Source: Trichocoleus sp. FACHB-46 (GTDB lineage Bacteria > Cyanobacteriota > Cyanobacteriia > FACHB-46). From it: a stretch of DNA of 64,000 nt. The first letter of the stretch is position 1; each line of letters begins with the position of its first letter. The stretch is taken from positions 1-64,000 of the forward strand of contig NZ_JACJOD010000033.1 in the NCBI RefSeq assembly GCF_014695385.1, read 5' to 3'. This document shows positions 22,374-52,312 of the stretch, one piece after another. The position numbers and the translations under genes were made by a program. The notes below the pieces were generated by a model. That model ran no database searches. It was not told the origin of the DNA and saw only the letters and a list, made by a program, of their open reading frames with translations.

Positions 22374-23000
22374 TTACAACCAATCCACTGACCAGTAACC
22401 GTCCATCACGGCTGCTACTTGCTCACTCAGGTGGGTTAAAGCTGTGAGTGTTTCTGGGGTTTCGTCATTCAGCTCTGCTAGCAGTTCTTGCCAAAGAGGT
22501 TCTTCCGTATGCCCAGCGATCGCGCCTGGAGGCCAGTAGGGCTGGTGGTGTTCTACCTTGCCGTCACGGATGAAATATCGCCGTTCTTTGGTAATAGGTA
22601 GACCATGAAAAGCGTGAAATGCGGGCTCTGTTTTGAGCAACTCACGCACGGCCCAAACACGGGTAGGCAGGCCAAAGAAGTCTACGCAGACTGAGAACTC
22701 AACGAGATCAACAATGTGTTGACCAATGACATTCGAACACGGATGGTCAAGATAACAGGTGCGGAGCCAGTCATGCTTGCCAGACGTATGTCCAGTACGA
22801 AGAAAGCAGGGATACCCTAAGCGATCGCCCGCCGCCTGAATTGCGGAAACGAACTGTGAGAACCCTTCTGGAACCGTGTTTTCTAAAAGCTGATCCAGGT
22901 CAATATCTGTGGTGATGATTTCGGTTTTAGGGACTGGAATCCCTTCAACTTCAAGCTTTGGGAACCAATAGGATAGGCAGCTTTTATTTTCTGTCAGCAT
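22374..23000 (-). CDS. ATP-grasp-like protein, shortened by an in-frame stop
   Basis: A 208-residue protein with the look of the small ATP-grasp enzymes found in phage and bacterial accessory loci. Lys-rich and aromatic N-terminal half, 'YPCFLRTGHTSGKHDW' (about 77-92, nucleotide-binding loop type), 'RVWAVRELL' and, at the end, 'YWSVDW', which usually leads into a last strand carrying metal-binding residues. The frame stops there with TAA, but continues afterwards as a convincing C-terminus (see 22278-22373). A CAA to TAA change is the simplest explanation, and the product is probably inactive. Family assignment is by pattern only and the substrate is unknown. It follows the split small gene by 14 bases and so belongs to the minus-strand string. 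Confidence 0.65.
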   Translation of the reverse strand: MLTENKSCLSYWFPKLEVEGIPVPKTEIITTDIDLDQLLENTVPEGFSQFVSAIQAAGDRLGYPCFLRTGHTSGKHDWLRTCYLDHPCSNVIGQHIVDLVEFSVCVDFFGLPTRVWAVRELLKTEPAFHAFHGLPITKERRYFIRDGKVEHHQPYWPPGAIAGHTEEPLWQELLAELNDETPETLTALTHLSEQVAAVMDGYWSVDWL

Positions 23001-23014
23001 TATGATCGCTTCCG

Positions 23015-23074
23015 CTAAAAGGGCTTGCCGTCATTGGTCAGAGCAATAGTTTGTTGCTCTAGCTGGTCTTGAAA
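23015..23074 (-). pseudogene. 3' part of small gene split by the IsrB element
   Basis: Directly beyond the right end of the IsrB element the frame reads 'FQDQLEQQTIALTNDGKPF' and stops with TAG at 23015-23017, 14 bases before the ATP-grasp-like gene. It joins in frame with the 5' part at 24436-24554: removing the element gives one reading frame of about 60 codons through 'EAALESQ' and 'FQDQLEQ'. The element has no target duplication, as expected for this transposon type. Confidence 0.7.
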
Positions 23075-23075
23075 T

Positions 23076-24221
23076 TCATAATTCCTCCGAGAAACCCCGT
23101 CCTCTTGAGGCAGGGAGGGATAGGAGGGGTGGCTGAGTGGGGTTCGATGCCCCCGAAGCGACCACCCCAGTATTTCGGGCAATCAGCATGACTTTAGATG
23201 CCGCAAACTGCCCTAATCGTTTCCAGTTGCAATCGCTCACTGAAACATGCTTTTGAGTGTCACCACTCACCCAACCGATTGACACTCTGCCAGCCATTTC
23301 CGCTTGGACTAGATCACCTTTGCGGAATCCATGACGGGTCACGGTGCCCCCATATCTGCGACGCACCCCACCTTTAGCAGGCACCATCAAATGCAATTGC
23401 CGCTTTGATATGGGTGGACGGCGAATGACTCGAAATAGCGAGGCGGTGATTTGAACAGAACCCATCCACTGATGTCCATGAGTATTAGCAGTGTGAAATG
23501 ATTCGTACTGAATAAACTCGGAACAAGCTAAGGCCAAACCATCCACAGCATGACTTTCAGGTGATTGAGATGCTTTGGCCTTGGTCTTAACTAGCCCTAG
23601 CTGAGTTCGGAGCTTAGCTGTTTCATAGCCAAGCTGCGTTTTAACGGGAGCCAGCTTTGACAGCCAATCCAGCATCACCCGTTGACCTACCATCACCGGA
23701 GAGAAGGATTTAGAACCCCTTGCCTCCACGTATTCGTAGACAATCTGGCTGACTGGAAAGAGCTTGCACAATTCAGTTACCACTCGCAATTCAAGCTGGC
23801 GATTAGCTCTGACGCTAGCGGGTAATTTACGTTGCTTGCGATTATCAAATCTGACTTGACGATGGGCGCGTTGGGAGTAGGCAACCTTGCGGTTAATTCT
23901 CCGCCCTCTGCGGCCCCGTCGCATCATACGGCGTTGCTCCATCCGGTCTTTGACCGTTTGAAATGGCAATATCAAATGAGCTAGAAACAGAGTCGCTTGG
24001 GCAGATTGCACTCCGATGCCGGAATACAATTTGCCTGGATCGACACCAACGGCAATGGGTTGAGTGTCACGGCCTGATGGCTCCTGAGTCAATTGCACAT
24101 AGAACAAACCCAAGTCAGACCAACGTTTAATGGCTTTGCCACTGGCAAGCCACTTTCTCGCTCTGGCTGGAGTGGTTGGCATGAGCGGTTGATTGTCGTG
24201 AGATATGACTGGAATTCGCAT
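23076..24221 (-). CDS. isrB: IsrB, RNA-guided nickase-type protein (RRXRR/RuvC, no HNH)
   Basis: A 381-residue relative of IscB, the ancestor of Cas9. It has the N-terminal PLMP motif (residues 12-15), RuvC-I Asp61 in 'VGVDPG', an Arg-rich bridge helix (about 98-131), RuvC-II with Glu in 'IVYEYVE' (about 163-166), and RuvC-III 'HAVDG' (His224, Asp227). Only about 60 residues separate RuvC-II and RuvC-III, leaving no room for an HNH nuclease domain. That makes it IsrB rather than IscB; characterised IsrB proteins nick the non-target strand. All RuvC residues are kept. The last 17 residues are encoded by the transposon end. An omega RNA is visible just upstream. Confidence 0.88.
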   Translation of the reverse strand: MRIPVISHDNQPLMPTTPARARKWLASGKAIKRWSDLGLFYVQLTQEPSGRDTQPIAVGVDPGKLYSGIGVQSAQATLFLAHLILPFQTVKDRMEQRRMMRRGRRGRRINRKVAYSQRAHRQVRFDNRKQRKLPASVRANRQLELRVVTELCKLFPVSQIVYEYVEARGSKSFSPVMVGQRVMLDWLSKLAPVKTQLGYETAKLRTQLGLVKTKAKASQSPESHAVDGLALACSEFIQYESFHTANTHGHQWMGSVQITASLFRVIRRPPISKRQLHLMVPAKGGVRRRYGGTVTRHGFRKGDLVQAEMAGRVSIGWVSGDTQKHVSVSDCNWKRLGQFAASKVMLIARNTGVVASGASNPTQPPLLSLPASRGRGFSEEL

Positions 24222-24435
24222 TGGTATAACCCAAATTGCTTTGTTTTAGTCCCTTCGCCCACCGCTAACAGGATGTCTTGGCTTTCCCAACGACTGAACC
24301 AATCAGCCTTAGAAATAATCCGAACTAGGGAGACATTCGGAAGTCTGTACCAGTTAGCGGCTCAATGGGCTATTCAACACTTGCGTCAACCGAATTGGTT
24401 CAGTCAATCCCCGTCCGCTCGCGACGGGGTAGTTG
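24222..24435 (-). ncRNA. omega RNA (HEARO-type) of IsrB
   Basis: The minus-strand sequence before the IsrB start has the structure expected of the HEARO/omega RNA. It holds a 7-bp hairpin CCCCGTC/GACGGGG (24409-24429), a perfect 12-bp long-range helix GACTGAACCAAT/ATTGGTTCAGTC (24292-24303 with 24394-24405), a small stem CCGAA/TTCGG (about 24320-24340), and a conserved-looking purine-rich 3' part running to the start codon. In this class the guide lies at the 5' end, so here it would be copied from host sequence just beyond 24437, inside the split gene. The exact 5' end cannot be set by eye. Confidence 0.75.
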
Positions 24436-24554
24436 AACTGTGACTCAAGGGCAGCTTCTGTACGAATAGGCCAACCTCGCCGTCGATCCAAACTTTGAAC
24501 CCGCTGAACAATATCCGGGAAAGGATAGCGCCCTGAGAGCTTCTCTGGCTTCAA
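24436..24554 (-). pseudogene. 5' part of small gene split by the IsrB element
   Basis: Starts with TTG at 24554 and encodes about 39 residues, including 'RYPFPDIVQRVQSLDRRRGW' and 'RTEAALESQ', before the element begins. The reading frame continues in the 3' part at 23015-23074. An ATG at 24561 is in another frame that closes early and was not chosen. The intact product would be a soluble protein of about 60 residues in the same transcription unit as the ATP-grasp-like gene. Confidence 0.65.
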
Positions 24555-26871: not shown

Positions 26872-28062
26872 ATGATTGTACTAGAGTTTAGGGCTTACGG
26901 TAAATCAAAGCAGTTCAGCGCCATTGATGAGGCTCTGAGAGCAGTTCAATTCATTCGTAACAAGGCTTTACGCTTTTGGATGGATGGGTTGGGCAAGTCT
27001 CAATACGACCTCAATAAATACTGTGCTGTACTAGCGAAAGAGTTTCCCTTTGCCAATGAACTCAACTCAATGGCCCGTCAAGCTGCGGCTGAACGGGCAT
27101 GGAGCGCAATCAGTCGTTTTTACGACAACTGCAAGAAGCAAATTCCTGGCAAGAAGGGGTTTCCACGGTTTCAGAAAGACAATCGCTCGGTTGAATATAA
27201 ATCATCCGGGTGGAAGCTGGCTGAAAATCGGAAGTCCATCACCTTCACTGACAAGAAAGGGATCGGCACATTAAAGCTGAAAGGCACTCGTGATTTGAAC
27301 TTCTATCAACCTGACCAAATCAAACGAATCAGGTTAGTAAAAAGGGCCGACGGGTACTATGTGCACCTCTGCGTCAGTGTGGAACGTCGCGAGAAGATTG
27401 AACCCTTCGGAAGTGCCATCGGACTCGATGTGGGACTACAGGAGTTCTACACCGACTCCAAGGGTATGACCGTTGAGAATCCGCGTTTCCTCCGCAAGAG
27501 TGAACGCAGGTTGAAACAGGCTCAAAGGCGCGTATCGAAGCGGGTCAAAGGGTCAAAGAACAGAGGCAAAGCGAGGCAGATTTTAGGTAAGCGCCACCTC
27601 AAGATAAGTAGGCAGCGTAAAGACTTCGCCGTGAAGTTGGCGAGGTGCGTAGTTCGGTCTAACGACCTGATCGCCTACGAAGACTTGAGAATCAAAAACA
27701 TGGTGCGGAATCATTGTCTTGCCAAGTCGATCAACGACGCATCCTGGTATCAGTTCCGCGTCTATTTGGAGTATTTCGGCAAAGTGTTCGGGAAGATCAC
27801 TATCGCTGTAACACCTAACGGAACGAGCCAAGAGTGCTCTAGTTGTGGAACTGTGGTCAAGAAATCGCTCAGTACCAGAACGCACGTTTGCCAGTGCGGG
27901 ACTGTGCTAGATCGTGACCACAATGCGGCTAGAAACATCCTAAGTCGAGGATTGAGTACGGCAGGGCATGTCGGAACTTTTGCGCTAGACGCAAGCAACG
28001 CTTGGGGAGAAGACACCGCTACTCTGGCTGGAGCAATCCTGCCTGAGCAAGTGACTTCGTAG
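26872..28062 (+). CDS. tnpB: TnpB, RNA-guided endonuclease of IS200/IS605 type
   Basis: A 396-residue TnpB, the Cas12-related nuclease that keeps the transposon at its site by cutting empty sites with a transposon-encoded guide RNA. RuvC Asp186 in 'IGLDVG', Glu270 in 'AYEDL', a zinc finger with Cys322/Cys325 and Cys340/Cys342, and 'DRDHNAA' (347-353) with the last catalytic Asp. All key residues are present and the length is normal. The ATG lies just after an AT-rich leader. The 3' end runs into the right-end hairpin that would form the scaffold of its guide RNA. Confidence 0.93.
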   Translation: MIVLEFRAYGKSKQFSAIDEALRAVQFIRNKALRFWMDGLGKSQYDLNKYCAVLAKEFPFANELNSMARQAAAERAWSAISRFYDNCKKQIPGKKGFPRFQKDNRSVEYKSSGWKLAENRKSITFTDKKGIGTLKLKGTRDLNFYQPDQIKRIRLVKRADGYYVHLCVSVERREKIEPFGSAIGLDVGLQEFYTDSKGMTVENPRFLRKSERRLKQAQRRVSKRVKGSKNRGKARQILGKRHLKISRQRKDFAVKLARCVVRSNDLIAYEDLRIKNMVRNHCLAKSINDASWYQFRVYLEYFGKVFGKITIAVTPNGTSQECSSCGTVVKKSLSTRTHVCQCGTVLDRDHNAARNILSRGLSTAGHVGTFALDASNAWGEDTATLAGAILPEQVTS

Positions 28063-37388: not shown

Positions 37389-38888
37389 ATGCCCTACAGC
37401 ACCCGAATCTACGACGAACTTCCACTGTATGCCCGTCTTGCCGATGAGCAAGGGGTGCTAGCGCACGTCTGTGAAGCCTATCAACCAGAGCTGGATGCTA
37501 TCCTTTCCCGCTTAGAGCGGCAGGAGTTTTTCTACAATCCAGACCTCACGCCGGAACGCTTTTTAGATTGGTTAGGACAGTTTGTAGGACTAGCTCCCAT
37601 AGGAGAGCACTGGTTGGGATTAGGCCTGAATCCTGACTGGCCTGCTCAACAAAAGCGTACCGTTATCGCGCGAGCTTGGCGCTATTGGCAACTCAAGGGC
37701 ACTGAGTGGGGCGTGCGCGAAGCTTTAGCCCTGTGGTTGCAATGGGAGGAATCTCACAGCCGCGATCGCCTCGCTATCAACTTACCTTTTGGAAAATCAC
37801 CGACTGCTCACCCGCCTAAGTGGTGGGATTACGTTACAACCTATGATGCTTGGCTGACTCAGACTTGGGAAGAGCGGCAGCAGTTTGGCAGCGGTGATTA
37901 TCCTCAAACCTACAAGCCAGATTGGTTCTCTTTAGAAAGTTCAGATTGGTTCTGGGAATATGGCAAGGTATGGACGGATCGAACACTCGATCAGGTTAAT
38001 GCAAACCCCATTGATTCACCAGGCTCAGCTTTAGGTCCAGATCGTCCTTGGATGCACTTGCACCCAGAGGTTCAGGACTGGAACCGCCTATTTCCTGATG
38101 TCCTAGATCTCAATCTTGAAATTTGGAGTGCTCAAACTCAACCCACTACCTTTGGCTGGCTGGACTTTGAGGAAACTTCTCCTGTTCTGTTACAGCGCAA
38201 TGCTAATCTACCGCAGCAACAAACAGTCCGAGAGTTTGAAATTCTTGGGTTTCAATACGATGACCTGCTGCCTTTCTCAGCTTTGGATGTGCAACCAGAG
38301 CCATTCAGTATTGCTGAGGAACAAGTCGAGTTTGGTATCTGGGGAGAGCTTGGCTGGGGAGATACCTATGAAGATGGTTGGTGGTATACAGCGCCGCGAC
38401 TCATCACCATTCAGACGATTACTACGGAATCGCCAACGGCTAATCTCTATGTCCAAGCCTCACCCCTCCAAGGTGCAGCCGAACTTGAGTTAGCTCTGGA
38501 AACAGTTAGCTCGGTGATTGAGGCCCCAGCGATCGGAGGCACTTCTGCAATAGAGCTACAGACAGCAGAGTTAGTAATTGAAGCCTCAGCGATCGGCGGG
38601 CAAGTAGGTGACCTAGAAGAAGAATTACTAACGGCTGACCAACCAGCTGAGGCGCGATCGCTCGGTGGTACTGATAGCCTTGCTCTGTCCACTGCTGACC
38701 AAGCAGCTGAGGCGCGATCGCTCGGTGGTACTGACAGCCTTGCTCTATCCACTGCTGACCAAGCAGCTGAGGCGCGATCGCTCAGTGGTACTGACAGCCT
38801 TGCTCTGTCCACTGCTGACCAAGCGGTGAACACCTCTTCATTCAACGCTCGTATCTATGACTGGTTCTTCTCTACCGCCTGCCTGTAA
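37389..38888 (+). CDS. tail protein I-like (P2 gpI type) with C-terminal repeats
   Basis: A 499-residue baseplate protein. The first 190 residues match the tail protein I pattern: 'YDELPLYARLADEQGVLAHV', then 'PDLTPERFLDWLGQFVGL' and 'RTVIARAWRYWQLKGTEWGVREAL', in which the KGTxxGV block is the hallmark. In P2-like tails this protein bridges baseplate J and the tail fibre. The middle is Trp-rich. Residues about 375-480 consist of 20-residue repeats ('EARSLGGTDSLALSTADQ') matching the 60-bp DNA repeats, possibly a fibre-attachment stalk. First gene of the long plus-strand fibre operon; ATG only four bases after a hairpin and T-tract. Confidence 0.85.
   Translation: MPYSTRIYDELPLYARLADEQGVLAHVCEAYQPELDAILSRLERQEFFYNPDLTPERFLDWLGQFVGLAPIGEHWLGLGLNPDWPAQQKRTVIARAWRYWQLKGTEWGVREALALWLQWEESHSRDRLAINLPFGKSPTAHPPKWWDYVTTYDAWLTQTWEERQQFGSGDYPQTYKPDWFSLESSDWFWEYGKVWTDRTLDQVNANPIDSPGSALGPDRPWMHLHPEVQDWNRLFPDVLDLNLEIWSAQTQPTTFGWLDFEETSPVLLQRNANLPQQQTVREFEILGFQYDDLLPFSALDVQPEPFSIAEEQVEFGIWGELGWGDTYEDGWWYTAPRLITIQTITTESPTANLYVQASPLQGAAELELALETVSSVIEAPAIGGTSAIELQTAELVIEASAIGGQVGDLEEELLTADQPAEARSLGGTDSLALSTADQAAEARSLGGTDSLALSTADQAAEARSLSGTDSLALSTADQAVNTSSFNARIYDWFFSTACL
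38634..38826. repeat. 60-bp tandem repeat, about 3.2 copies, coding
   Basis: Three nearly identical 60-bp units begin at 38641, 38701 and 38761, plus a short partial copy at each edge. They differ at only a few bases. Each contains the HIP1 site GCGATCGC and encodes 20 residues. Two older, degenerate 20-residue units precede them. Recent in-frame expansion and contraction is likely. Confidence 0.9.
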
Positions 38889-38891
38889 CTT

Positions 38892-39755
38892 ATGACCCTG
38901 GTATTCAACCAAACCAAACTCGGTCTCCTTAATCGATCGCTGGACCTAACCAGCGGTACCTTCTACTTGCAGCTAGTTACTGTTGTGCCTACAGACCCTG
39001 CTATCACCAGCGTGGCGCAGCTATTCACAGCAACTGGCGGTAACTATGCCCCTTTTATATTCAATAACCTACCAGTTCTTTCAACTAGCGGTGATGCGGC
39101 GATCGCCTCCTTTGACACAGTCCCTTACTGGCCTCAGTTAGCAACCAATGGCGCTGCCAGTATCAAGGGATCGGTACTCTGCAAGCAGGTTGGTGGAGGC
39201 CCATCTCCTTCTGATCCTATCCTTTGCTACAACGACTTGGCGATTCCCTTCAGTCCGAACGGCACAGCAAACTTCCGTGCCATCCTTGCTAACACAGGTG
39301 TCCTTCGACTTCTATTCTCGGAAGGATTAGTTTTTACTCAAACCTTACTAGGCCTGCTAAACCGAGCCCTGAATTTAACCAGCGGTACCTTCTACGCTCA
39401 TCTAGTTACCACTGCACCCACAGCCCCAGCATTCACTGCTGTATCGCAACTAACACTGGCAACTGGAGGCAATTATGCTCCGGTTCTCCTATCAGGGTTG
39501 GGATTTGGCACTAATGGCAATGCTGCGTTGTGGCAGGCAACCAACCCAACTTGGAGTAACTTAACAACCGATAATGCAGCCACCATTAAAGGCGCAGCGA
39601 TTTGTAGACAGTTAGGAGCTACCCCAGCTCCCACTGACGCACTCATTTGCTACAAGCCCCTTAATTCAACTCAGTTTCCAACTGGTTATGTCACTAACGG
39701 CTCAAACTTCACCGCTGAAATTGGTGCAACAAATGGACTATTGAGGATGCCTTAA
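38892..39755 (+). CDS. tail-module protein with two tandem domains
   Basis: A 287-residue protein made of two copies of a domain of about 140 residues. Both begin with 'LVF.QT.LGLLNR', continue with 'LTSGTFY' and 'ATGGNYAP' and end with an 'L.CY' segment. Beta-rich, no signal peptide, probably a structural or receptor-binding part of the fibre complex. It starts three bases after tail protein I and its last base overlaps the next gene's start. Family unknown to me; role inferred from position. Confidence 0.6.
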   Translation: MTLVFNQTKLGLLNRSLDLTSGTFYLQLVTVVPTDPAITSVAQLFTATGGNYAPFIFNNLPVLSTSGDAAIASFDTVPYWPQLATNGAASIKGSVLCKQVGGGPSPSDPILCYNDLAIPFSPNGTANFRAILANTGVLRLLFSEGLVFTQTLLGLLNRALNLTSGTFYAHLVTTAPTAPAFTAVSQLTLATGGNYAPVLLSGLGFGTNGNAALWQATNPTWSNLTTDNAATIKGAAICRQLGATPAPTDALICYKPLNSTQFPTGYVTNGSNFTAEIGATNGLLRMP

Positions 39756-41026
39756 TGGAACGCTGCAATCCCGGATTTGAGACAGAAGTTGTAGTTGGCA
39801 ATTCTCAACAGGTAATTCCCGACGTACCTGCAATCCCTACCAACCAATTTTTTACGGTTATAGCAGGTGAGTTTCGGCTAGAGGAACCAGTAGCGATCGC
39901 CACTCATTTCAGCAGTTTTGAGCAAGGAGATTGGTTTTATTTTGCAGGTATTCCAGCAGTGCCCGGTGATGTCGTTAATGTGCCTGTGCTTGAACGAGTT
40001 CAACTCTGCAATGTTGTTGATCAATTTAGCCGAAGACAGGCAGAGGGAATTGATTTGCCAACTCCAGTTCCTACGGCTCAATCTCTTTTTGAAATCTATC
40101 CCACCTTAGCTCGAATGAGCACAGGTGAGAATTGGCAACTTCTGCTAGAAACAGATACCGGAGTGACGGTGCTCTCACCGGTGACATTGTTTTGGACAGA
40201 TGAACTAGGGAGACGCTTCACCTCCGTTGACTTGGAGCAGGGGCGCGATCGCCTGTTACTAGAGTTTGTCTTCCAATCCTCACAGCCCACGACTTTGCGC
40301 TCAGCAAACCTGATTTTGAAAGAGGCGCCAGATGAGTCACTAGCGGCCCAATTGAGCGAATCTGCTATTCAAGGCAAACTATTCCAAATCAATCAGTGGT
40401 TGAGTTTTTACAGTCGCACTGAGTTGCCGTTTGTCATTAATGGGCAAGGGATTGCTCAAATTGTGACTGAATCCAATACTTTACCCTCTCAAGTAAGTAC
40501 GAGTTCGGGACAGTTGAGGTTGATACATGCTTGCCTGCAAGCGTACTTGACAACAAACCTGGCTCAATATCGAGAACGGTCGCTGACATTAACAGAGGCG
40601 TTGCTAAATTACTTCTACCCAGAACCAATTCCTATAGATACTCAAACTCTATGGGCACCTCACTGGTTAGTGAACGCTGGTGATTCTTTTGCTGGCCAAG
40701 GACCCGTTGCTCCACAACCAAACAACTATGGAGCTTTTGATGTAGCGATCGAGTTTTTCAATGGAGTCGGCCAACTTCCAGAAAACATAGCTGAAGTTTA
40801 CAAGGTGTATACCGGGGAACTGACTTGGGTAAATGCCTCAGCTGAGTTGGCAGAGGGCAAAAGCTACGCGATCGATTACTGGGTTGATGCGGACAGCCAA
40901 CAACGATTTCCTAACTCACAGGAGGAGGAAGACGTACAGACGGAAGGTTCTATCTTTTATGTCACAAGTCAGGAGACTCAATTCGTCTCCCCAACTTATT
41001 CAGCATTTATTTTGGGGGTTTATTGA
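39755..41026 (+). CDS. tail-module protein, unknown
   Basis: A 423-residue protein, beta-rich in the first 190 residues, then a helical stretch ('RLIHACLQAYL...LTEALLNYFY') and a beta-rich C-terminus. It is start-stop coupled on both sides (one-base overlaps), so it is translated with the fibre genes. No catalytic motif is identifiable. Likely a structural component or adaptor of the tail fibre network. Confidence 0.55.
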   Translation: MERCNPGFETEVVVGNSQQVIPDVPAIPTNQFFTVIAGEFRLEEPVAIATHFSSFEQGDWFYFAGIPAVPGDVVNVPVLERVQLCNVVDQFSRRQAEGIDLPTPVPTAQSLFEIYPTLARMSTGENWQLLLETDTGVTVLSPVTLFWTDELGRRFTSVDLEQGRDRLLLEFVFQSSQPTTLRSANLILKEAPDESLAAQLSESAIQGKLFQINQWLSFYSRTELPFVINGQGIAQIVTESNTLPSQVSTSSGQLRLIHACLQAYLTTNLAQYRERSLTLTEALLNYFYPEPIPIDTQTLWAPHWLVNAGDSFAGQGPVAPQPNNYGAFDVAIEFFNGVGQLPENIAEVYKVYTGELTWVNASAELAEGKSYAIDYWVDADSQQRFPNSQEEEDVQTEGSIFYVTSQETQFVSPTYSAFILGVY

Positions 41027-41484
41027 TGCCAATTCGAGGATTAGATGCAGTCTCAGGAGAACCGATTTTTCTTGAAACTTTTCAAGGGGATGGGACAGAG
41101 CAAGCTCCTTACCGGCTAGCCCGCGCAGATAAGATTGCTCATGACAGATTAAATGATGTCAAAACAGAAATTGGCAAACTTGTCACCATCCTCTCTCGCA
41201 CTACAACTCCCACGCCAATTAGCATTAGTGGTGCTGGCGATTCTCCGATCGTTAGCCCTACCACAGGAAAGGCTCTTCGCATCTGTGCCATTAGTTTTAC
41301 AGCCGCAAGCCTTGTCACTGTCACTTTTAAGGGTGGAACCACAGCAATTTCCGGCGCAATGCAGCTGACAGATTATTCAGAAGCATTCAATCCACCTCTT
41401 GGGCTAGCAATTGATCAACCTTTCAGGCTAAGTCTAGGCTCAGCTGTTGCAGTCAACGGATTTGTTACCTGGTATGAGGTGTAA
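41026..41484 (+). CDS. small beta-rich tail-module protein
   Basis: A 152-residue protein. The first 50 residues are polar and helical, the rest is Thr/Ser/Ala-rich beta structure resembling a small fibre-tip or adaptor domain. The ATG at 41026 overlaps the upstream stop by one base (TGATG). Three bases separate its stop from the collar-domain gene. Not recognised beyond context. Confidence 0.5.
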   Translation: MPIRGLDAVSGEPIFLETFQGDGTEQAPYRLARADKIAHDRLNDVKTEIGKLVTILSRTTTPTPISISGAGDSPIVSPTTGKALRICAISFTAASLVTVTFKGGTTAISGAMQLTDYSEAFNPPLGLAIDQPFRLSLGSAVAVNGFVTWYEV

Positions 41485-41487
41485 AAG

Positions 41488-42108
41488 ATGGGGACCATTC
41501 GTGGAGCTGCCAGTGTTCTAGTTGTGCCGATTGGCTCAATGCAAGACTATGAGGGAGATATTCCGGGAAACGGCATTATTCAAGAGAGTGGATTAACTTG
41601 GCTCCTACTTGATGGAGCAACAATTGGTAGCGCGAGTAGTGGTGCTGCCCGATATGCCACGGACAAAGCGCGCGAGCTGTTCAAAAAGTTGTGGAACAAC
41701 GTAAATCTAGTGATTTTCACAAACACTGGTGTCCCCAGCACTAGAGGGGCAACGGCAGACGCTGATTTTGATGCTGGCAAACGGCTATCTCTTCCCGATC
41801 CGCGTGGGCGAGCTGTGATTTCTGCTGGTCAAGGATCTGGACTGACTAACCGCGCTAGAGGCCAAACCGGAGGGGCGGAAACCCATACAATGAGCACCGG
41901 TGAGATGCCCACTCACGGGCACGGGGCGTACCACAACAATGAGGTCTACAAGCTTGGGGCTGGTGGAGCGGGAGAGAACGTTTCGCTCAACCCCACGTAC
42001 TACGGGTTTAACGCGGGAACCGATTTGCAAGGTTCTGGGAATGCCCACAACATCATGCAACCGTATTACGTCACGGGCGGAAAATTAATTTTGGCAGGAA
42101 GAGTATGA
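41488..42108 (+). CDS. phage tail collar-type fibre protein
   Basis: A 206-residue protein with the features of tail-collar fibre domains: N-terminal 'VPIGSMQDYEGDIPGNG', a middle 'LPDPRGRAVISAGQG' (collar domains typically read 'LPDLRGRF..G.G'), 'MPTHGH' and a C-terminal 'NIMQPYYV'. The His in THGH and the Tyr-rich end are typical of short trimeric tail fibres that bind the receptor. It overlaps the DUF4376-type gene by four bases, as fibre and chaperone genes commonly do. Confidence 0.8.
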   Translation: MGTIRGAASVLVVPIGSMQDYEGDIPGNGIIQESGLTWLLLDGATIGSASSGAARYATDKARELFKKLWNNVNLVIFTNTGVPSTRGATADADFDAGKRLSLPDPRGRAVISAGQGSGLTNRARGQTGGAETHTMSTGEMPTHGHGAYHNNEVYKLGAGGAGENVSLNPTYYGFNAGTDLQGSGNAHNIMQPYYVTGGKLILAGRV

Positions 42109-42737
42109 AATTTCAGCATCATCCGGACAACTTCATTTACCTGAATGACCTGCGTTTGCCACTGGAGGTTTTCCAGAAACAAGAGCCAGACTATTCACTG
42201 CCTAAGGGAGCAACCCACCGCCTCTATACAGGCGATCGCCATCTGCTCTACAGCAAAGATAGTCAATGGGCGGGAGAGGTCCCTTGGCAAGAAGGCGATC
42301 GCTATCTGGCCAACATCGCCAAGTACCAAGCAGATTGGGAAGCCCGCCTAGCAGCTCGTTTAGAGCCATCACCGACTACCGTTGAAGAAGCAAGAACGTA
42401 CATCGGGGGGAAAATCAATACGTTAAGAATCGAGAAGGAGCAAGCCGGAGTTGTTTGGAATAGCCATCCGGTCCAGACCCGTCCGATGGATGTCAATAAC
42501 CTCAATGCCGAAGTCTTGGCAACTCAGACAGGTGCTCGGCAAGACGGTGAAATCTGGCGAATGGGAAACAATGAAAATATTTTCTTAACGAATGCCCAGC
42601 TGCTTGAAATGGCGGCGGCGGTTCGAACTCACGTTAAGCGGTGCTATGGGGCGGCATGGCAGCATAAAGCGGTCATAGAACAGCTTCATACTGTTAATGA
42701 AATCCTGAGTTACAACTTCCAGCGTGGGTGGCCCTGA
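42105..42737 (+). CDS. DUF4376-like fibre-associated protein
   Basis: A 210-residue protein. The C-terminal 120 residues fit DUF4376 ('INTLRIEKEQAGVVWNSHPV', 'MDVNNLNAEVL', 'FLTNAQLLEMAAAV'), a domain that follows collar fibres in many phages and is thought to help fibre assembly or capping. The N-terminus is tyrosine- and His-rich. It overlaps the collar gene by four bases upstream and the next gene by one base, consistent with translational coupling and a partner relationship. Confidence 0.75.
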   Translation: MKFQHHPDNFIYLNDLRLPLEVFQKQEPDYSLPKGATHRLYTGDRHLLYSKDSQWAGEVPWQEGDRYLANIAKYQADWEARLAARLEPSPTTVEEARTYIGGKINTLRIEKEQAGVVWNSHPVQTRPMDVNNLNAEVLATQTGARQDGEIWRMGNNENIFLTNAQLLEMAAAVRTHVKRCYGAAWQHKAVIEQLHTVNEILSYNFQRGWP

Positions 42738-44782
42738 TGCCAGGCATTCCAGGCCAAATTGTTCTCAAAAACAAAGCCTTTTCAGGGATTTTGAAGGTTG
42801 CTTATTCCAGTTTTTCAGGACCTAACATTCAAAATGGGCAAGCCTTTGACATTGAGCCTATGTGGCGATCGCTGCAACCAACAGAGACAATTGTCACTTT
42901 TGAGTCTTTGGCTCAAGCAGCTGATACCTTCAGGTTGCTTTATGAGGTAACGAGGGAGGAACAGTGGAATAGAGCTTATCAGGCAACGCTCTCAACCTTT
43001 CAATCAGTTGCAAGACTCCGAAACACTGTTTATTTTTTTAGACGCGAGACAACGGGACAAGTGCTTTCGCACTGGGGCACTAGGATTCGCACTAGCAATC
43101 CTAACCCTGTATTGGCGCTACGACTGCCCAATGGCTTGGTCAGATTAGATATTCCGTTAAATCAAGGAACTGAAACGGAGCTCAAGCAGCAACGGATTGC
43201 AGTGGAGTTAGCTGCTGAATCTCGAATTCAAGCAGAAATTGGCTTGAGCACTGCTGGTAGTGTCGCTATTGTCCTTACCACAACTGACGACAACCGCTGG
43301 GAGGCAGGGTTTGTTTGTGAAGGGAACAACTCAGTTGTGGAGCAATCTTTTGGAACTCCTGATTTCTTGCAATGGACTAATGAGACAACTTGGCACGCTG
43401 GGTTGCCGTTCTATACTTTTCGGGGAGCTACAGGACTCGCTAGTTCATCTGTAAGAAACGTGGCGATCGCCGCTGGCAACTCAGTGGTTGCTACTTTTGA
43501 ACTCGCAGGAAATTTCGACTTTGCAGGGGCTGGCTTGAAGGGCAGCTTCAAAGAAGTTCCTAGCCCTCTTACCTATGCACTCAGCAATAATCCCGTACAG
43601 CTGAGACTACAGGATCAAGCGGGATGGTACTGGGAAAAACTGTTGCCAGTTACAGGTGGTCAATTTGTCACCTTGGTCCTAGCTTGGAGCGAATTTCAGC
43701 TGGCAGCCGAGCAGACTAACGTGGGACCAACACCAGGGATACCATCCATTGATGGACCCATTCAAGCCGTTGAATTCGTGGCGGGGCGGGATACTTCACT
43801 CCTTGCAATTCACTACTTGGGCGCATCTCCTCAAAGATTACTTCCCCCCGTCACGATTAAAGGCTGTAGCATTGTCAGTCGTGAGTCAGCCTTTCATAGC
43901 TTGTTGGTAGGAGATGTACAACTGCTCCCAAGCGAACAACCAAAATATACACCCGGTGTTACTCCTCACGCTGTCTCGATCCAAGGAGAGCAAGTTCAGG
44001 ATTGGCGATCGCTTCCGATTGTGGGTAATCAGCAACTGGCAATTTGGTCACTAGTCGGTCAATCAGAGGCAGCAGAGCAGGTTTACCAATTCCTCTCAGA
44101 CGCTCAGAATACCTACGCCTTAAAAACAGGAATTGATGGTCCTTTTGCACCTGCCTATATTTGGCCCAACCGTTCTAATTTCCAAGAGGAAGGTAATGAG
44201 TTTACTTGGACAGATACTAATTTTGATTTGACATGGGGGGGATGGCAGGCAAAAGCAGCCGTTTCCACCGCTTATGGCTGGTATCTAGAACCCGATGCCT
44301 CGGGACTGGCTCAAGATATCACACTCCGCTTTCTAAAATTTTTAGATGATAGTTGGGGCAGCGGAGCCATCGCTTGGGTAAGATTTTCTGAACAAGAACG
44401 ACCCGTCGCCGGTGGCGATGTGGCAATAGTGGCTTTATATGCCCAAGCAGCTGTCTATGCCAATTTGGCAGGAGGCGATCGCACTCTCACTTATCGGGTG
44501 TTGAGTAAAAGTTTGAATTATTTATTGGAAAATGCCGAGTTCCCCCTAGCAAATCCGCCAGGAGCTATTACTGGATATGAAGTAGCGGAAACAATCGAAG
44601 CCTTAGCTTTGGTGCTAAAACACAAATCTCAACTGAGCTATCCAACTCCGGCGGATTTAGGAGACAAAGATAGTGACTTTGCGGCTAAGCTAGTGAAAGT
44701 TTCCCAGTTTGCTACCCCTTTGAATTTGCCTCAGCAAGCTGCTTATGGGCTTAGGTTTACAGTTCCAGTCCAAGAACTGTAG
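42737..44782 (+). CDS. large tail-module protein, possibly glycosidase-like C-terminal part
   Basis: A 681-residue protein. The first 400 residues are mainly beta. From about 440 on it becomes an alpha-helical repeat with aromatic motifs ('GIDGPFAPAYIWPNR', 'FLDDSWGSGAIAWVRF', 'AQAAVYANLAGG') reminiscent of alpha/alpha-toroid glycosidases. It could therefore be a tailspike acting on surface polysaccharide. No catalytic pair was identified, so this is a guess. The ATG at 42737 overlaps the previous stop (TGATG); a GTG nine bases upstream is an alternative. A hairpin with T-tract begins 50 bases after its stop. Confidence 0.5.
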   Translation: MPGIPGQIVLKNKAFSGILKVAYSSFSGPNIQNGQAFDIEPMWRSLQPTETIVTFESLAQAADTFRLLYEVTREEQWNRAYQATLSTFQSVARLRNTVYFFRRETTGQVLSHWGTRIRTSNPNPVLALRLPNGLVRLDIPLNQGTETELKQQRIAVELAAESRIQAEIGLSTAGSVAIVLTTTDDNRWEAGFVCEGNNSVVEQSFGTPDFLQWTNETTWHAGLPFYTFRGATGLASSSVRNVAIAAGNSVVATFELAGNFDFAGAGLKGSFKEVPSPLTYALSNNPVQLRLQDQAGWYWEKLLPVTGGQFVTLVLAWSEFQLAAEQTNVGPTPGIPSIDGPIQAVEFVAGRDTSLLAIHYLGASPQRLLPPVTIKGCSIVSRESAFHSLLVGDVQLLPSEQPKYTPGVTPHAVSIQGEQVQDWRSLPIVGNQQLAIWSLVGQSEAAEQVYQFLSDAQNTYALKTGIDGPFAPAYIWPNRSNFQEEGNEFTWTDTNFDLTWGGWQAKAAVSTAYGWYLEPDASGLAQDITLRFLKFLDDSWGSGAIAWVRFSEQERPVAGGDVAIVALYAQAAVYANLAGGDRTLTYRVLSKSLNYLLENAEFPLANPPGAITGYEVAETIEALALVLKHKSQLSYPTPADLGDKDSDFAAKLVKVSQFATPLNLPQQAAYGLRFTVPVQEL

Positions 44783-44831
44783 GATTGAGCCAATATCAAC
44801 AATCCATCACTGCAAAGGTTAACCCTAATCG

Positions 44832-44873
44832 GAGACCGCGACTCAATCAGAGAGTGGCGGTCTCTTTGTTTTT
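44832..44873 (+). terminator. hairpin with T-tract between tail genes
   Basis: Stem GAGACCGC (44832-44839) with GCGGTCTC (44857-44864) followed by TTTGTTTTT. It lies 50 bases after one tail gene and 14 bases before the ATG of the next. It could terminate the first part of the operon or attenuate the second. The stem sequence is nearly the same as the one before the gpV-like gene at 56.7 kb. Confidence 0.7.
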
Positions 44874-44886
44874 AACTCCTACCTCT

Positions 44887-47097
44887 ATGCCTGATCCACT
44901 TGAACGTAAAGATCACGACTTAGGAATTGTCTTTGTTCCACCTGCTTCACCCACTGATCCGCGCGTACCCACAGCGGAAGAGTTGACGTTGGGGCAGCAA
45001 ATTACAAGTTCGGTGATCAGCCGCTCCCGAATTCAACAGGGGTGGCAACAGCTTCCGCAATTAAGTTTTTCCCAGAACCGACGATTAGCGATCGCCAACG
45101 GTAAGGCCCTTTTGCCTGTGTATCCAGGCATCTTGCTGCTCAACACAACGATCACTGTTCCAGTTCTAAGCAGTAGCGCTAGCACCATTAAGCAGTCCGA
45201 CTGGGTTTACTTAGCTGGCTTTGAGGCCGAGGTAGGAGCTGCTCAAGACCCAGTCTTAGGAGAATACGCTTTCCAGTACCGCGATCGCGGTACGAATCAG
45301 ATTGCTACCATCACCAAGGAGAACACTCGACGACTGCGAGCTTTTTGGGCGATCGTTCTGAGTCCTAACCCTTTATCAACAACAGATTTTCTCAACTTAC
45401 TAACGTTGGAGGGCGACAACCGTAGGCTAGCGATCGCTGATACCTCCGATCTAGGTTTCAATATCGGCTCAGCCAGGTTCTACGCCAGAGACCCTAATCT
45501 CACCCTGAACGCTGGATACACCATTTTTAGTAATTCCATCAATCTGGTTGAAGTGTGCCAGGTGCGGCGACTGCAAAACTACACTGAACGCGGCTACATC
45601 TGGGGTTATGGTGGGGAGGGGGCACTGAGTGCTGAGTATCATCTGATTTCAACCGCTCCTCGGATCGACAACCGCGACCTAGAAAATGCAATAAGGCAGC
45701 GGTGTCGAGAAATATTTGCGGGCAATTCTGGGTCTGGTTCTGGCTACGCTTTAACCGTTCAAAACCTGATTGCCAGTTCAGTGGGGGGCAATCCAGGCTA
45801 CCCAGGAGAGTCGGCAGGTAGCCCCAATGGTTCTGTTTGCTTGGCCGACGATCAGCGCGTCAGCTTTACCAACCAAGCCATTATTCAGAAATATAGTTGC
45901 CAAGTTGTAACTGCCACTAACAATGGCTCTGGTAGCCCATTGGTAACAGTTAGCTTGAATACGAGTTCTCCCACTGGGAAGTTCTTCAGTGGCAATCGCC
46001 TTGATCATCGCATCTATTCTGCCAATGGTGTGGATCAATCAGAGCGCGGAGCCTGGAGTAACCTTGGCGGGACCGGATCGCTGATTTGGGTCGGAGATGC
46101 CAATACCACCATCACACCTGGCTCTACAGTCTATGTTGTTCCAGGGATGTACTATCCAGCTGGCTCGGGATTCAGTATTCCATTTGATGCCGTGTTACAG
46201 GTTTGGCGAAACGCAACTCAGATTTCTTCAGCGAATATTCGAGCCGCTGACTCAGCTGATTTAGATGCTTACGCAGACCCAGCTAATAACGAAGACTTCT
46301 TTGTAGTAGTGGGCAAGGAGCGAGCGGCTCTGCACTATATCCTCAAACGGGTCACAATCACGACCGATGCTAACGGTGTCACAGTAATCCCAGCAACAGA
46401 GCGGGGCTGCTTCGCGTTCATTCAAGGGGTAGCAAGCCGCATTGACACACCTGTTAAAACTGGGTTAGCTGCCAACACAACTTACAAGGCGCTGGTCTAC
46501 TACCCACCTCGGGCTGATGAAACTTGGCAGCTGCTGATGGCCTATGCGGAGTATGCAGGCATTGGTACGCTGGAACCTCAATTTCTTTCAGGTGCAACTG
46601 TTGTTTCTAAGCCTCTGTTTTTCATTCACACGCAAGGTGGGGGGAGCGCAGTTCATCAGGGTGAGTCGGATACTCAGTTGGCACCAATCGCGATGCATTT
46701 GCCCGCGATCGCGGCTCCAGCCATGCCTCCCTATCGCTTCAATGCACCGGTGCAAATTCTAGGTGAGCCGTATCCAGGCCCCATCACCCTGCGAGAGTAT
46801 CCCCTCTTGCCTGCCCCTGGCTTGGCGCTACCCGCCCCCGGTCAAACGCTCTCCTTAGAGGCAGCAACTCAAGTGCAATCGCGATCGCTGCGAGCTCGCA
46901 TCATGGTGGATGGTCAGTTGATGGGCTTTCGATCCCCCATCTTGGCCAGCCGAGCTGAGTTTCAAGCAGTGTTGATGTTTGTCGTTGAGAAAGGGGGCGA
47001 TCGCCGACTTGTAATGATTGCTCGCAATACGAGTGGAGGAGAGAACATCCCCATTGACTCTGACCAGCAAACTGCTTTTGACACATTCAGGCTTTAG
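44887..47097 (+). CDS. large structural tail-module protein
   Basis: A 736-residue protein with an N-terminal helical part, then a beta-rich body with many Gly/Ser/Thr ('AVGAGNSGSGSGY'-like and 'GESAGSPNGS' segments). No catalytic motif. Such large beta-rich proteins between baseplate and fibre genes are usually baseplate-edge or fibre-hub components. The start at ATG 44887 is preferred over a TTG at 44785 because the latter would place the terminator-like hairpin inside the coding region. Three bases separate its stop from the next gene. Confidence 0.55.
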   Translation: MPDPLERKDHDLGIVFVPPASPTDPRVPTAEELTLGQQITSSVISRSRIQQGWQQLPQLSFSQNRRLAIANGKALLPVYPGILLLNTTITVPVLSSSASTIKQSDWVYLAGFEAEVGAAQDPVLGEYAFQYRDRGTNQIATITKENTRRLRAFWAIVLSPNPLSTTDFLNLLTLEGDNRRLAIADTSDLGFNIGSARFYARDPNLTLNAGYTIFSNSINLVEVCQVRRLQNYTERGYIWGYGGEGALSAEYHLISTAPRIDNRDLENAIRQRCREIFAGNSGSGSGYALTVQNLIASSVGGNPGYPGESAGSPNGSVCLADDQRVSFTNQAIIQKYSCQVVTATNNGSGSPLVTVSLNTSSPTGKFFSGNRLDHRIYSANGVDQSERGAWSNLGGTGSLIWVGDANTTITPGSTVYVVPGMYYPAGSGFSIPFDAVLQVWRNATQISSANIRAADSADLDAYADPANNEDFFVVVGKERAALHYILKRVTITTDANGVTVIPATERGCFAFIQGVASRIDTPVKTGLAANTTYKALVYYPPRADETWQLLMAYAEYAGIGTLEPQFLSGATVVSKPLFFIHTQGGGSAVHQGESDTQLAPIAMHLPAIAAPAMPPYRFNAPVQILGEPYPGPITLREYPLLPAPGLALPAPGQTLSLEAATQVQSRSLRARIMVDGQLMGFRSPILASRAEFQAVLMFVVEKGGDRRLVMIARNTSGGENIPIDSDQQTAFDTFRL

Positions 47098-47100
47098 GGT

Positions 47101-48294
47101 ATGGCAAGAAATCCTCAACTTTTTCCCACTGACTTTCCTGCCACCATACCGGGGGTTGGCTCAGAAGAGTTTGCATTAGAAAATGCAGTCACAACCATCC
47201 AGCGGCAAGCACGAGACACAGCAGTCCGGCAGGCTCATACGCGGCGGATTGGCGGACAGAATTCAATCGGCAACCAAAATAAGCTGGTCAGTGCGTCACA
47301 ATTCCTGATGCCGCTTTATCAAATTGGCCCTGTCATCCAGGCCCCTCCCTTTTTGGGAACTGCGGCTTACTTGGGTGGGGGACGTGGCTACACCAGCACC
47401 TTTGATGCGATGTACCAGCTTCCCTTTTCCAACGAAACCTTCGCTGATATGGGAGTGCGTTTAACTGAAGCCCGGATGTATTGCGGGACGGTCGGGGATG
47501 CAAGTGCTGGCAGATTTTGTGGTGGGTTCAACTCCAAATTTGGAACTTCAGTTACCAGCCTGGATGAGTTTACTTATTTAAAGGAATCAGTTCAACGACT
47601 AGGCGCTCAACTGAGCCAAGCCCGATTTGGCTTAGCTGGAGGAATTGGTGATAAGACGAAAGGGTTTCTCCTAGGTGGAGTAGCAGTAGGCTCAGTTAGT
47701 GCGGTCCGAACGGGCGATCGCCTCACTTATGCCACCAATACCATTGCAGGGCTTGGCAATTTCCTGCTCACAGACCGGATTGCCCCGCACAACGGCACTT
47801 GCAATAAGTTCTCCGGGTATATCTATGGGGGCTCGCCCGTCGCGTGGCTGGGAGGGCCGCTCTTTTCAATTGAGCGAATCACACTTACAACTGAAGCTAT
47901 TACAACAATTGGAACCACTCTTGCCCATGCTCACGTCGTTCATGGCACTTGTGGCAGTGATATCAAAGGATACCTTGCTGGAGGCAATACAAATCCTCCT
48001 GCTAGTTGGAATTGGTTTACGAACACCATCACAGCTTTTACTTATTCTGGTGAAACATCGGCTCCTCTATCAGCGACCCTGGTAGAGGGAAAGGTGTGCT
48101 TGGATGGCACTGGTAGCAGTGTTGCAGGGTACTTCGTAGGAGGTGACACTGTTGCAGCCAACTGGCAAGGTACAACCACAGCGGACAAGTTGACCTATAA
48201 CAATGAGACCACCGCCCGCTTGGGTGCTCAGCTTTCTCAACCTCAATCAGATCAAGGAGCTGTGAGCGATTATGGGGCTGGATTCTCCTACTAA
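47101..48294 (+). CDS. fibre protein with kelch-like beta-propeller repeats
   Basis: A 397-residue protein. From about residue 95 it contains roughly 50-residue repeats, each with a Gly-Gly turn ('GFLLGG', 'GYIYGG', 'GYLAGG', 'GYFVGG') and a Thr/aromatic strand ('LTYATNTI', 'FTYSGET', 'LTYNNET'). The layout is that of a kelch-type propeller. Propellers at fibre tips bind cell-surface sugars. The first 90 residues are probably the attachment domain. The downstream gene overlaps its 3' end by about 22 bases. Confidence 0.65.
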   Translation: MARNPQLFPTDFPATIPGVGSEEFALENAVTTIQRQARDTAVRQAHTRRIGGQNSIGNQNKLVSASQFLMPLYQIGPVIQAPPFLGTAAYLGGGRGYTSTFDAMYQLPFSNETFADMGVRLTEARMYCGTVGDASAGRFCGGFNSKFGTSVTSLDEFTYLKESVQRLGAQLSQARFGLAGGIGDKTKGFLLGGVAVGSVSAVRTGDRLTYATNTIAGLGNFLLTDRIAPHNGTCNKFSGYIYGGSPVAWLGGPLFSIERITLTTEAITTIGTTLAHAHVVHGTCGSDIKGYLAGGNTNPPASWNWFTNTITAFTYSGETSAPLSATLVEGKVCLDGTGSSVAGYFVGGDTVAANWQGTTTADKLTYNNETTARLGAQLSQPQSDQGAVSDYGAGFSY

Positions 48295-49000
48295 AGAACC
48301 TCTGACTAATCTGTCAATTAATTCCAAAGCAGGGGTAGAGCATGAAATTCAACGACAGGAGCGGGTTCATTGGTTTTTGGGTTTGCGTCAAGCAGAGCTG
48401 TTCATTCAAGAGAAAAGAGCAGCTCTAGAAACTAATTATCATTTGCAACGAAAACATAGCCGGCAGGTTAAGACTTGGGAGAAAGAGTTGCAAACTCTGC
48501 AAGAGCTTGAGCAGCCCAGCCTAGAACAACTGGATCAAATTGAGGCGTTGCAGGATGACATCGCTGCGGCCAAGAGCAGTCAGGAAAATTTGCAGCCTTT
48601 GATCCGAGATTGTGGGATGGAATTGCATAGCGCTGAAGATCAAAAGCAGAGAATCTTACAGGCACATCCAGAAGCAATCGACCTTTCTTACATTGAGTTG
48701 CAAACCCGGTACAGCGCAGTTGCTCTTTTGGAAAAGCAAGCTCATGTCACTGCCGCCGAAATCTGGGCCAGTCACAATGCTCTCCCTGTCTCTGTTGGAC
48801 ATTTGCTATTTGACTTGTCTCCAGCAGATAGAGACTACGTCCTAGCCCGGGAAATGGAACTGAGAAACGGCGTGAAGGTGGGTGAAGCGATCGCTCATGC
48901 TGCTCAAGTTCTAGCCACCTTATCTCCAGAGACACAAAAGCAAGTTCTTCTGCAAGCAGCCCAAACTGTTATGAACTCTTCTGCCTTGACCCATGAATAA
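48272..49000 (+). CDS. coiled-coil protein, possible fibre chaperone
   Basis: A 242-residue, strongly helical and charged protein with a long coiled coil (about 25-140). It sits between two fibre genes, overlapping the previous by 22 bases and the next by eight. Helical, soluble partners in this position are often assembly chaperones, but no family signature was seen. The ATG at 48272 opens the frame; GTG alternatives exist nearby. Confidence 0.5.
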   Translation: MGLDSPTKEPLTNLSINSKAGVEHEIQRQERVHWFLGLRQAELFIQEKRAALETNYHLQRKHSRQVKTWEKELQTLQELEQPSLEQLDQIEALQDDIAAAKSSQENLQPLIRDCGMELHSAEDQKQRILQAHPEAIDLSYIELQTRYSAVALLEKQAHVTAAEIWASHNALPVSVGHLLFDLSPADRDYVLAREMELRNGVKVGEAIAHAAQVLATLSPETQKQVLLQAAQTVMNSSALTHE

Positions 49001-51107: not shown

Positions 51108-51373
51108 GCTTCTGGATGGGCTAAAAAGTTATTGGGGTCAGGAATTGTAACGACTCTACCGACCTGCAATTCTTCAAACGCAGAACCAATACGATTGAGC
51201 TTCAGAAATTCAGGATAACTGCTTGGATCAGCGCCGTGGTCCAGCAAAAATTTTGGTAGAGGTTGCCCGTCGTAGACTATGGTTTTAGTCTCAGGTCGAG
51301 CGATCGCGTAACCATATCGAGAGATCGGCGAGGGAATTCGCGATTGAGATTGTGAGAGTTGAGAGAGAGACAT
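51104..51373 (-). CDS. tail protein X / LysM-like protein
   Basis: An 89-residue protein. The second half reads 'YPEFLKLNRI' and 'ELQVGRVVTIPDP', the pattern of a LysM-type motif as found in P2 gpX-like tail proteins, which sit at the tube-spike junction and may bind peptidoglycan. The first 25 residues are Ser/Gln-rich and flexible. It ends the minus-strand block and starts three bases after the stop of the 46-residue gene, so they are co-transcribed. Confidence 0.7.
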   Translation of the reverse strand: MSLSQLSQSQSRIPSPISRYGYAIARPETKTIVYDGQPLPKFLLDHGADPSSYPEFLKLNRIGSAFEELQVGRVVTIPDPNNFLAHPEA

Positions 51374-51376
51374 GAG

Positions 51377-51517
51377 TTAATTGCGAGGCCATAACTGGCC
51401 CACCAGTGGAATTTCAGGGCCGGAATTTTTCTTATACAAAATCAAGCCCTGATAAATTATCCTACCCGTCTTGGGTAAATTGTATGTAGCATCTTTATTT
51501 CCCTGCAAAACAGCCAT
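51377..51517 (-). CDS. 46-residue protein in the tail operon
   Basis: A short gene with ATG at 51517 and TAA at 51377-51379. It starts three bases after the stop of the 262-residue gene (51521) and ends three bases before the ATG of the LysM-like gene (51373), so it fills the gap exactly. The product is basic with a beta-rich centre ('KTGRIIYQGLILYKKN') and ends 'GQLWPRN'. It is below usual length cut-offs. The packing is strong evidence of coding; function unknown, perhaps a small baseplate or capping component. Confidence 0.7.
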   Translation of the reverse strand: MAVLQGNKDATYNLPKTGRIIYQGLILYKKNSGPEIPLVGQLWPRN

Positions 51518-51520
51518 ACG

Positions 51521-52309
51521 TCAAACAATCCTTATGGCAATACAAGCAGCACTTCCATAGATAATTTCATACTTCTCAGTTTCGCTAACTTCTACAACAT
51601 CAAGCTTATTTGTTCCAGAACCATATAGAGCAGAAATATCTTCGGGTAGAGTGCCTAAGACAGCATTATTTAGGCTTGAGTAGATCGGCAAATTGCTAAT
51701 CAAATCCCGCTTTCCAGTAATCGGATTGGGGTTTTGCATTCTAGTAGCACTTAGTTCTAAAACTGCTTCCGACAACCCCGTATAGACTGCTGGCAGAGGC
51801 ACATAAAAAGAATTAAGACTTAGGCCACTCTGGTTGCGAGGATAAAAAACATAAGGAGATTGATTTTCATTCCACCAACTCGGCTTATTGCTAGGGCGAA
51901 TAAAACCAAGTACAACAACGTTGTTATTACTATTTCCTTGCGACAAATAAAGTAGACGATATCGATCGCCATTAACATAGGTAGTTACATATAGCTCAAT
52001 AGAACTAAGCATGTTTACAAAAGTGCTTCCTGTTCCCTCGTTGGCCAAGACTTTAGTTGATGCATTCCATGCTGTTCCCACGGCTTGAGTAACGGTATAG
52101 GTGCCGTAATAAAAACGTACCCTAAAAAATGCAGTTCCATAGGTTTTAGTGGCATCAAAGGTGTAGGAAAACACTAAAAAGCGATCGCCTGAAACATAAT
52201 CATCAACCAGAGTGAAGCCCATATCAAGGAATGCTTGTTTGATTACATTTCCAAATGAAGTGGTATCTACAGGTGCGGGAATTATCTGCTGAGTTCTTGT
52301 GGCAACCAT
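51521..52309 (-). CDS. tail-module protein, unknown
   Basis: A 262-residue protein, rich in Tyr, Asn, Ser and beta structure ('RVRFYYGTYTVTQAVG'), without a known motif. It starts three bases after the fibre gene and is followed three bases later by the 46-residue gene. It resembles phage virion proteins of the fibre-associated kind in composition. The position between the fibre and gpX-like genes suggests a baseplate or fibre component. Confidence 0.55.
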   Translation of the reverse strand: MVATRTQQIIPAPVDTTSFGNVIKQAFLDMGFTLVDDYVSGDRFLVFSYTFDATKTYGTAFFRVRFYYGTYTVTQAVGTAWNASTKVLANEGTGSTFVNMLSSIELYVTTYVNGDRYRLLYLSQGNSNNNVVVLGFIRPSNKPSWWNENQSPYVFYPRNQSGLSLNSFYVPLPAVYTGLSEAVLELSATRMQNPNPITGKRDLISNLPIYSSLNNAVLGTLPEDISALYGSGTNKLDVVEVSETEKYEIIYGSAACIAIRIV

Positions 52310-52312
52310 TAA

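What the first reader, a model, noticed from the sequence alone, without database searches (positions are those of the whole stretch)
23015..24554. IsrB transposon inside a small gene, with the empty site reconstructable
The flanking frames join without loss into a gene of about 60 codons. Both the RuvC-only nuclease and a HEARO-type omega RNA are intact, and the guide would derive from the interrupted gene, just beyond 24437. This gives a natural IsrB with a known native target, useful for finding its target-adjacent motif.
Basis: partly seen in the sequence, partly recalled or inferred. Interest (0 to 1): 0.7.

Follow-up and report, generated by a model that had tools for sequence, protein, structure and literature searches.

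The report
IsrB transposon, empty site re-read
This is an intact, ordinary cyanobacterial IsrB jumping gene that carries its own guide RNA; comparison with dozens of relatives fixes its exact ends and the short DNA tag (ATGA) beside its native target, and shows that the two halves of the gene it seems to interrupt are out of frame by one base.

Summary
The element is real and intact. On the minus strand, 24437-23080 (1358 nt) is an IsrB transposon: a 381-aa RuvC-only nuclease (24221-23076) preceded by a HEARO-type omega RNA (24437-24222). The nearest solved protein is DtIsrB. The window RNA forms 61 of 62 pairs of a 36-sequence consensus, 49 of them with compensatory changes. Empty sites of seven related insertions show scarless insertion: the element starts at the G/T of [G/T]TCA and ends directly before NTGA (ATGA in 52 of 58 loci), the published DtIsrB TAM. 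Nothing here is a new kind of system. A side result may be new: in 21 of 49 related insertions the TAM ATG looks like the start codon of a host gene, against 5.8% of control ATGA sites.

The parts
23080..24437 (-). whole element (1358 nt), left end TTCAACTACCCC, right end ..CTCGGAGGAATT
   Evidence: boundary rule from empty sites of relatives, first-base covariation, coordinates
23076..24221 (-). IsrB, 381 aa, RuvC-only; its stop codon TGA (23078-23076) lies in the flanking TAM
24222..24437 (-). omega RNA scaffold (HEARO model 24437-24243), 216 nt up to the IsrB start codon
24438..24457 (-). predicted 20-nt guide AAGCTGCCCTTGAGTCACAG, host sequence left of the element
   Evidence: guide at the 5' end of the omega RNA as in DtIsrB (PMC9581776); not tested by RNA data
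23076..23079 (-). TAM and insertion motif ATGA (TCAT on the plus strand)
   Evidence: NTGA at all 58 curated right boundaries, ATGA at 52; empty sites
23080..23118 (-). right-end terminal region with imperfect hairpin, then GGAGG 5 bases before the boundary
   Evidence: read directly and compared with relatives
24409..24429 (-). left-end hairpin CCCCGTCGCGAGCGGACGGGG, also part of the omega RNA guide-adaptor region
24438..24554 (-). left half of the supposed small gene, 39 codons from TTG
   Evidence: coding score typical of true genes
23015..23079 (-). right half of the supposed small gene, 21 codons and TAG; one base out of frame with the left half across the reconstructed junction
   Evidence: coding score at 99th percentile of true coding

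Best explanation
This is a non-autonomous IS200/IS605-type (HEARO/IsrB) transposon that inserted without a scar at the base before an ATGA. On the other strand that is directly 3' of TCAT, the expected target of a Y1 TnpA transposase supplied in trans. It encodes an omega RNA whose guide is the host sequence just left of the element. IsrB with this RNA should nick the rejoined empty site, AAGCTGCCCTTGAGTCACAG followed by ATGA, after the element excises, which would favour restoring the element by recombination. Shown here: protein family, RNA fold, exact ends, scarless insertion in relatives, TAM. Inferred: TnpA in trans, guide use, nicking and the retention function. The insertion probably broke a small gene whose two halves are now one base out of frame.
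For: Protein. RNA. Ends and TAM: empty sites of seven related insertions, several at 91-99% identity and ungapped at the junction, NTGA at 58 of 58 boundaries. Two full-length Y1 transposases elsewhere in the genome, one with a right hairpin ending CCCCGC..GCGGGGTAGTT like this element's plus strand. DtIsrB TAM NTGA and non-target-strand nicking (PMC9581776); junction targeting for retention described for TnpB (PMC11870625). Coding scores of both halves.
Against: No empty allele of this very site was found, so its boundaries rest on the family rule. No transposase in cis. The Rfam score is below the curated cut-off. A retention role for a nickase is not shown in any paper read here. The one-base frame offset is unexplained.
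Confidence: 0.85

Rival explanations
1. One reading: the pre-insertion site was ...CACAGTATGAATTTC..., inside an intact gene of about 61 codons, and one T has been lost at the left junction since insertion (TTT to TT), or the excised junction carries one base more than the family rule says.
For: With that T the two halves join in frame. Both halves score as coding, and the right half has no start codon of its own.
Against: Empty sites of T-type relatives place the boundary exactly at TTCA and directly before ATGA; base 24437 is a paired scaffold base. No homologue containing both halves was found.
Confidence: 0.3
2. The two halves never were one gene; the element sits between unrelated coding remnants or in an intergenic stretch.
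For: Frames do not join under the family boundaries. No homologue, no Pfam match. The left ORF starts with TTG and no ribosome-binding site is evident upstream.
Against: The right half scores at the 99th percentile of true coding yet has no start codon, so its 5' part should lie to the left; the left half scores as coding too.
Confidence: 0.3
3. A dead copy: immobile and inactive, kept by chance.
For: Single copy in the genome; no tnpA in cis; nearest relatives found are about 74-76% identical.
Against: Open frame with RuvC motifs aligned to DtIsrB, near-perfect RNA fold, both ends intact, Y1 transposases present in the genome.
Confidence: 0.12

Closest known systems
DtIsrB (Desulfovirgula thermocuniculi IsrB, PDB 8dmb; PMC9581776)
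   Same: RuvC-only nuclease with N-terminal PLMP region and C-terminal TAM-binding region, upstream omega RNA with 5' guide, NTGA beside the target
   Different: Larger omega RNA in DtIsrB (284 nt with guide); about 380 aa here against 353; here the stop codon is borrowed from the TAM
HEARO RNA (Rfam RF02033)
   Same: The whole 211-position model aligns upstream of the nuclease gene
   Different: Score 47.9, below the curated cut-off of 83; lacks some sub-helices of the model
IscB (OgeuIscB and others; NCBIfam NF040563)
   Same: N-terminal PLMP and RuvC region homologous
   Different: No HNH domain here; IscB equivalog cut-off not reached
TnpB of IS200/IS605 elements
   Same: Guide taken from the flank, target is the excision junction, TAM equals the transposase target motif (PMC11870625)
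   Different: Guide at the 3' end of the RNA and TAM on the 5' side; double-strand cutter, whereas IsrB is a nickase

Membership tests
IsrB (OMEGA nickase) | RRXRR/PLMP N-terminus and RuvC motifs I-III | tested here: met
   PF14239 E 1.7e-47; collinear alignment to DtIsrB with GVDPG, an E in motif II and SHAVDG
IsrB (OMEGA nickase) | No HNH domain | tested here: met
   381 aa collinear with DtIsrB, no HNH match in Pfam or NCBIfam
IsrB (OMEGA nickase) | Omega RNA encoded directly upstream, structure conserved | tested here: met
   HEARO match E 3.7e-8; 61 of 62 consensus pairs formed, 49 of the pairs with compensatory change
IsrB (OMEGA nickase) | NTGA motif 3' of the guide-matching sequence at the empty site | tested here: met
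   ATGA directly after the element; 58 of 58 boundaries NTGA, empty sites of relatives
IsrB (OMEGA nickase) | RNA-guided nicking of the non-target strand | not testable with these tools
   needs biochemistry
HEARO RNA (RF02033) | Score at or above the curated gathering cut-off | tested here: not met
   47.9 against 83 bits, though E 3.7e-8 over the full model; so called HEARO-type, not a curated member
IS200/IS605 transposon | Scarless insertion next to a fixed short motif, hairpins at both ends | tested here: met
   relatives' empty sites; ends compared; for this very copy by rule only
IS200/IS605 transposon | Y1 TnpA transposase in the element | tested here: not met
   none in the element; two full-length Y1 matches on other contigs, so non-autonomous at best
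IscB | HNH domain and NF040563 cut-off | tested here: not met
   98.3 against 175 bits

The most novel reading that the evidence does not exclude
Cyanobacterial IsrB transposons tend to occupy host start codons: the ATGA motif that serves as insertion site and TAM is the start codon of the downstream gene in about 40% of insertions, often with the element's right end supplying a GGAGG- or AAGGAG-like ribosome-binding site. Such an element would sit in front of an intact gene, use that gene's upstream region as guide, and could take over its expression. The window copy has such a right end but did not hit a start codon.
Probability: 0.55. Interest if true: 0.5.

Novelty: new member of a known kind. 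Interest (0 to 1): 0.35.

Why it matters
It gives a cyanobacterial IsrB with a predicted guide and TAM that could be tested directly, and shows that TAMs of this family can be read from genomes without a screen. The start-codon bias of the family, if it holds, would help explain how such elements persist without killing genes and suggests an effect on host gene expression. The window copy by itself is ordinary.

Tried and rejected
Homologues of the small gene were sought by joined protein in 59 and 390 genomes, plasmids, phages and viral contigs, and by DNA in plasmids. Only weak partial matches came up, in a sigma-like protein (L004/L005, 38-39%, E 6e-4 and 5e-3 for one genome, with 390 searched, so near chance). 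The downstream ATP-grasp-like gene was used as a synteny anchor: no relative in the other 389 genomes. A 16-base stretch of the guide matched 25 viral contigs, roughly what chance would give in a collection of that size by my estimate; the right flank matched none. The idea that IsrB generally borrows its stop codon from the TAM was rejected as a family trait: true here and in 4 of 57 relatives only. The ribosome-binding site in the right end is not universal: a group with ends like CCCATTTTTCTG lacks it yet also sits at start codons. L061-L063 were left out of the start-codon count because their left ends could not be located.

Full report
OBSERVATION. The stretch 23015-24554 holds, on the minus strand, an ORF of 381 aa (24221-23076) matching RRXRR/PF14239 at E 1.7e-47. 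Its closest solved structure is DtIsrB (8dmb, E 1.2e-54, residues 2-354, collinear through the RuvC motifs). There is no HNH match, and the IscB equivalog model scores below its cut-off (98 against 175 bits). Upstream lies a HEARO match, 24437-24243 minus, covering the whole model (47.9 bits, E 3.7e-8, but below Rfam's cut-off of 83). The genome, judged cyanobacterial from the named relatives, has one copy.

THE RNA IS INTACT. From relatives in genome contigs and in 390 genomes of the class (48 with a match), 36 non-redundant omega RNAs were aligned. The consensus has 62 pairs, 49 of them with at least one compensatory change, and the window forms 61. The structure was predicted from this same alignment, which includes the window, so the pair counts lean towards it. 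The first base of the element pairs with the last base of the outer helix: T-A in 17 loci and G-C in 17, no exceptions. The T at 24437 is therefore part of the RNA scaffold and not of the host flank.

EXACT ENDS FROM EMPTY SITES. The two flanks of relatives' insertions were joined in a script and searched in their own families. Uninterrupted sites aligned through the junction. For elements beginning with G: L076->L092 (96%, 340 of 340 ungapped), L042->eight genomes (97-99%), L040->L138, and L070, which lies at the start codon of a gene I read as cyanophycin synthetase, ->L140/L142/L143. For elements beginning with T, as in the window: L084->L167/L168/L171, L068->L170, L066 (before a start I read as secF) ->L155-L157; L072->L113 at 77% agrees. 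In each case nothing is duplicated or lost, the element starts at the G/T of [G/T]TCA and the right flank begins with ATGA. L059 lies inside a gene and its flanks join in frame by the same rule (read). Over 58 curated boundaries the right flank begins ATGA 52 times, TTGA 5 and GTGA once. DtIsrB's published TAM is NTGA (PMC9581776). I placed the boundaries by eye from the terminal hairpin with NTGA in mind, and 20 of 49 loci have a second NTGA nearby; the empty sites are the independent check.

WHAT THIS SAYS ABOUT THE SMALL GENE. Applied here, the element is 24437-23080 and the site before insertion reads ...GCTGCCCTTGAGTCACAG|ATGAATTTCAAGACCAGC.... The left TTG ORF (24554-24438, exactly 39 codons) then runs on as ATG AAT TTC AAG ACC AGC TAG. 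The right half (..GAA TTT CAA GAC CAG..) is in another frame. The right half has no start codon, and the next gene starts 14 nt after its stop. One broken gene with a single base lost since insertion, for example TTT to TT at the left junction, is thus a fair reading, but unproved. If the lost base is the T at the junction, this copy's guide would miss its TAM-proximal base.

MECHANISM. Shown: protein, RNA, ends, TAM position. Inferred: single-strand transposition by a Y1 TnpA acting on the plus strand at TCAT. Two full-length Y1 matches lie on other contigs, and one has a right hairpin ending like this element's. Inferred: the guide AAGCTGCCCTTGAGTCACAG (24457-24438) with ATGA at the donor joint directs IsrB to nick the empty site, favouring restoration. 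Junction targeting for retention is described for TnpB (PMC11870625). A nickase doing the same is not shown in anything read here.

START CODONS. In the reconstructed empty sites the TAM begins an ORF of at least 60 codons with under 20 upstream in-frame codons in 21 of 49 relatives, against 90 of 1554 other ATGA sites in the same loci (odds ratio 12, p 5e-13). Against intergenic ATGA sites only, the odds ratio is 3.5, p 2e-4. With one locus per genome it is about 15 of 36; with unambiguous boundaries only, 11 of 29. Starts are inferred from ORFs, not annotation. Many right ends carry GGAGG, AAGGAG or GAGG shortly before that ATG, but one group does not. Selection against insertions inside genes explains part of this; the excess over intergenic sites suggests more. 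Searches of the held papers found no description of it, but the original HEARO (2009) and OMEGA (2021) papers were not held, so it may already be known.

VERDICT.

Noticed in passing
L006, L024, L053, L066, L068, L070, L071, L072, L084, L088 and others, right boundary: In 21 of 49 related IsrB insertions the TAM ATG appears to be the start codon of the downstream host gene, far above control ATGA sites.
   Followed up: partly
window 23076-23079: The IsrB stop codon TGA is supplied by the host TAM (ATGA); the same holds in L059, L063, L078 and L081 but not in most relatives.
   Followed up: yes
L061-L064, upstream of the IsrB match: Dolichospermum IsrB loci have a group-II-intron-like reverse transcriptase sequence directly upstream of the IsrB match, read; it may sit inside the element.
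   Followed up: no
window 37389-56649: A cluster of phage-tail-like genes (Tail_P2_I, tail proteins of phrog_2871, Phage_base_V) that may be a contractile tail or injection-type system.
   Followed up: partly
window 26872-28062 (+) and 60332-61561 (+): Two TnpB genes in the same window, without a recognised transposase gene beside them.
   Followed up: no
window 22374-23000 (-): The gene just after the insertion is weakly ATP-grasp-like (R2K clade), absent from 389 other cyanobacterial genomes searched, with relatives on very large Pseudomonas plasmids (about 34-36%) and two viral contigs.
   Followed up: partly
L059 and L064: Two Dolichospermum-group genomes (G135, G177) carry an IsrB insertion with the same right flank, so apparently one shared insertion.
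   Followed up: no
58 right boundaries: The base after NTGA is A in 42 of 58 loci (ATGAA, i.e. TTCAT on the other strand), hinting at a five-base insertion motif; partly confounded by start codons followed by Lys/Asn.
   Followed up: partly
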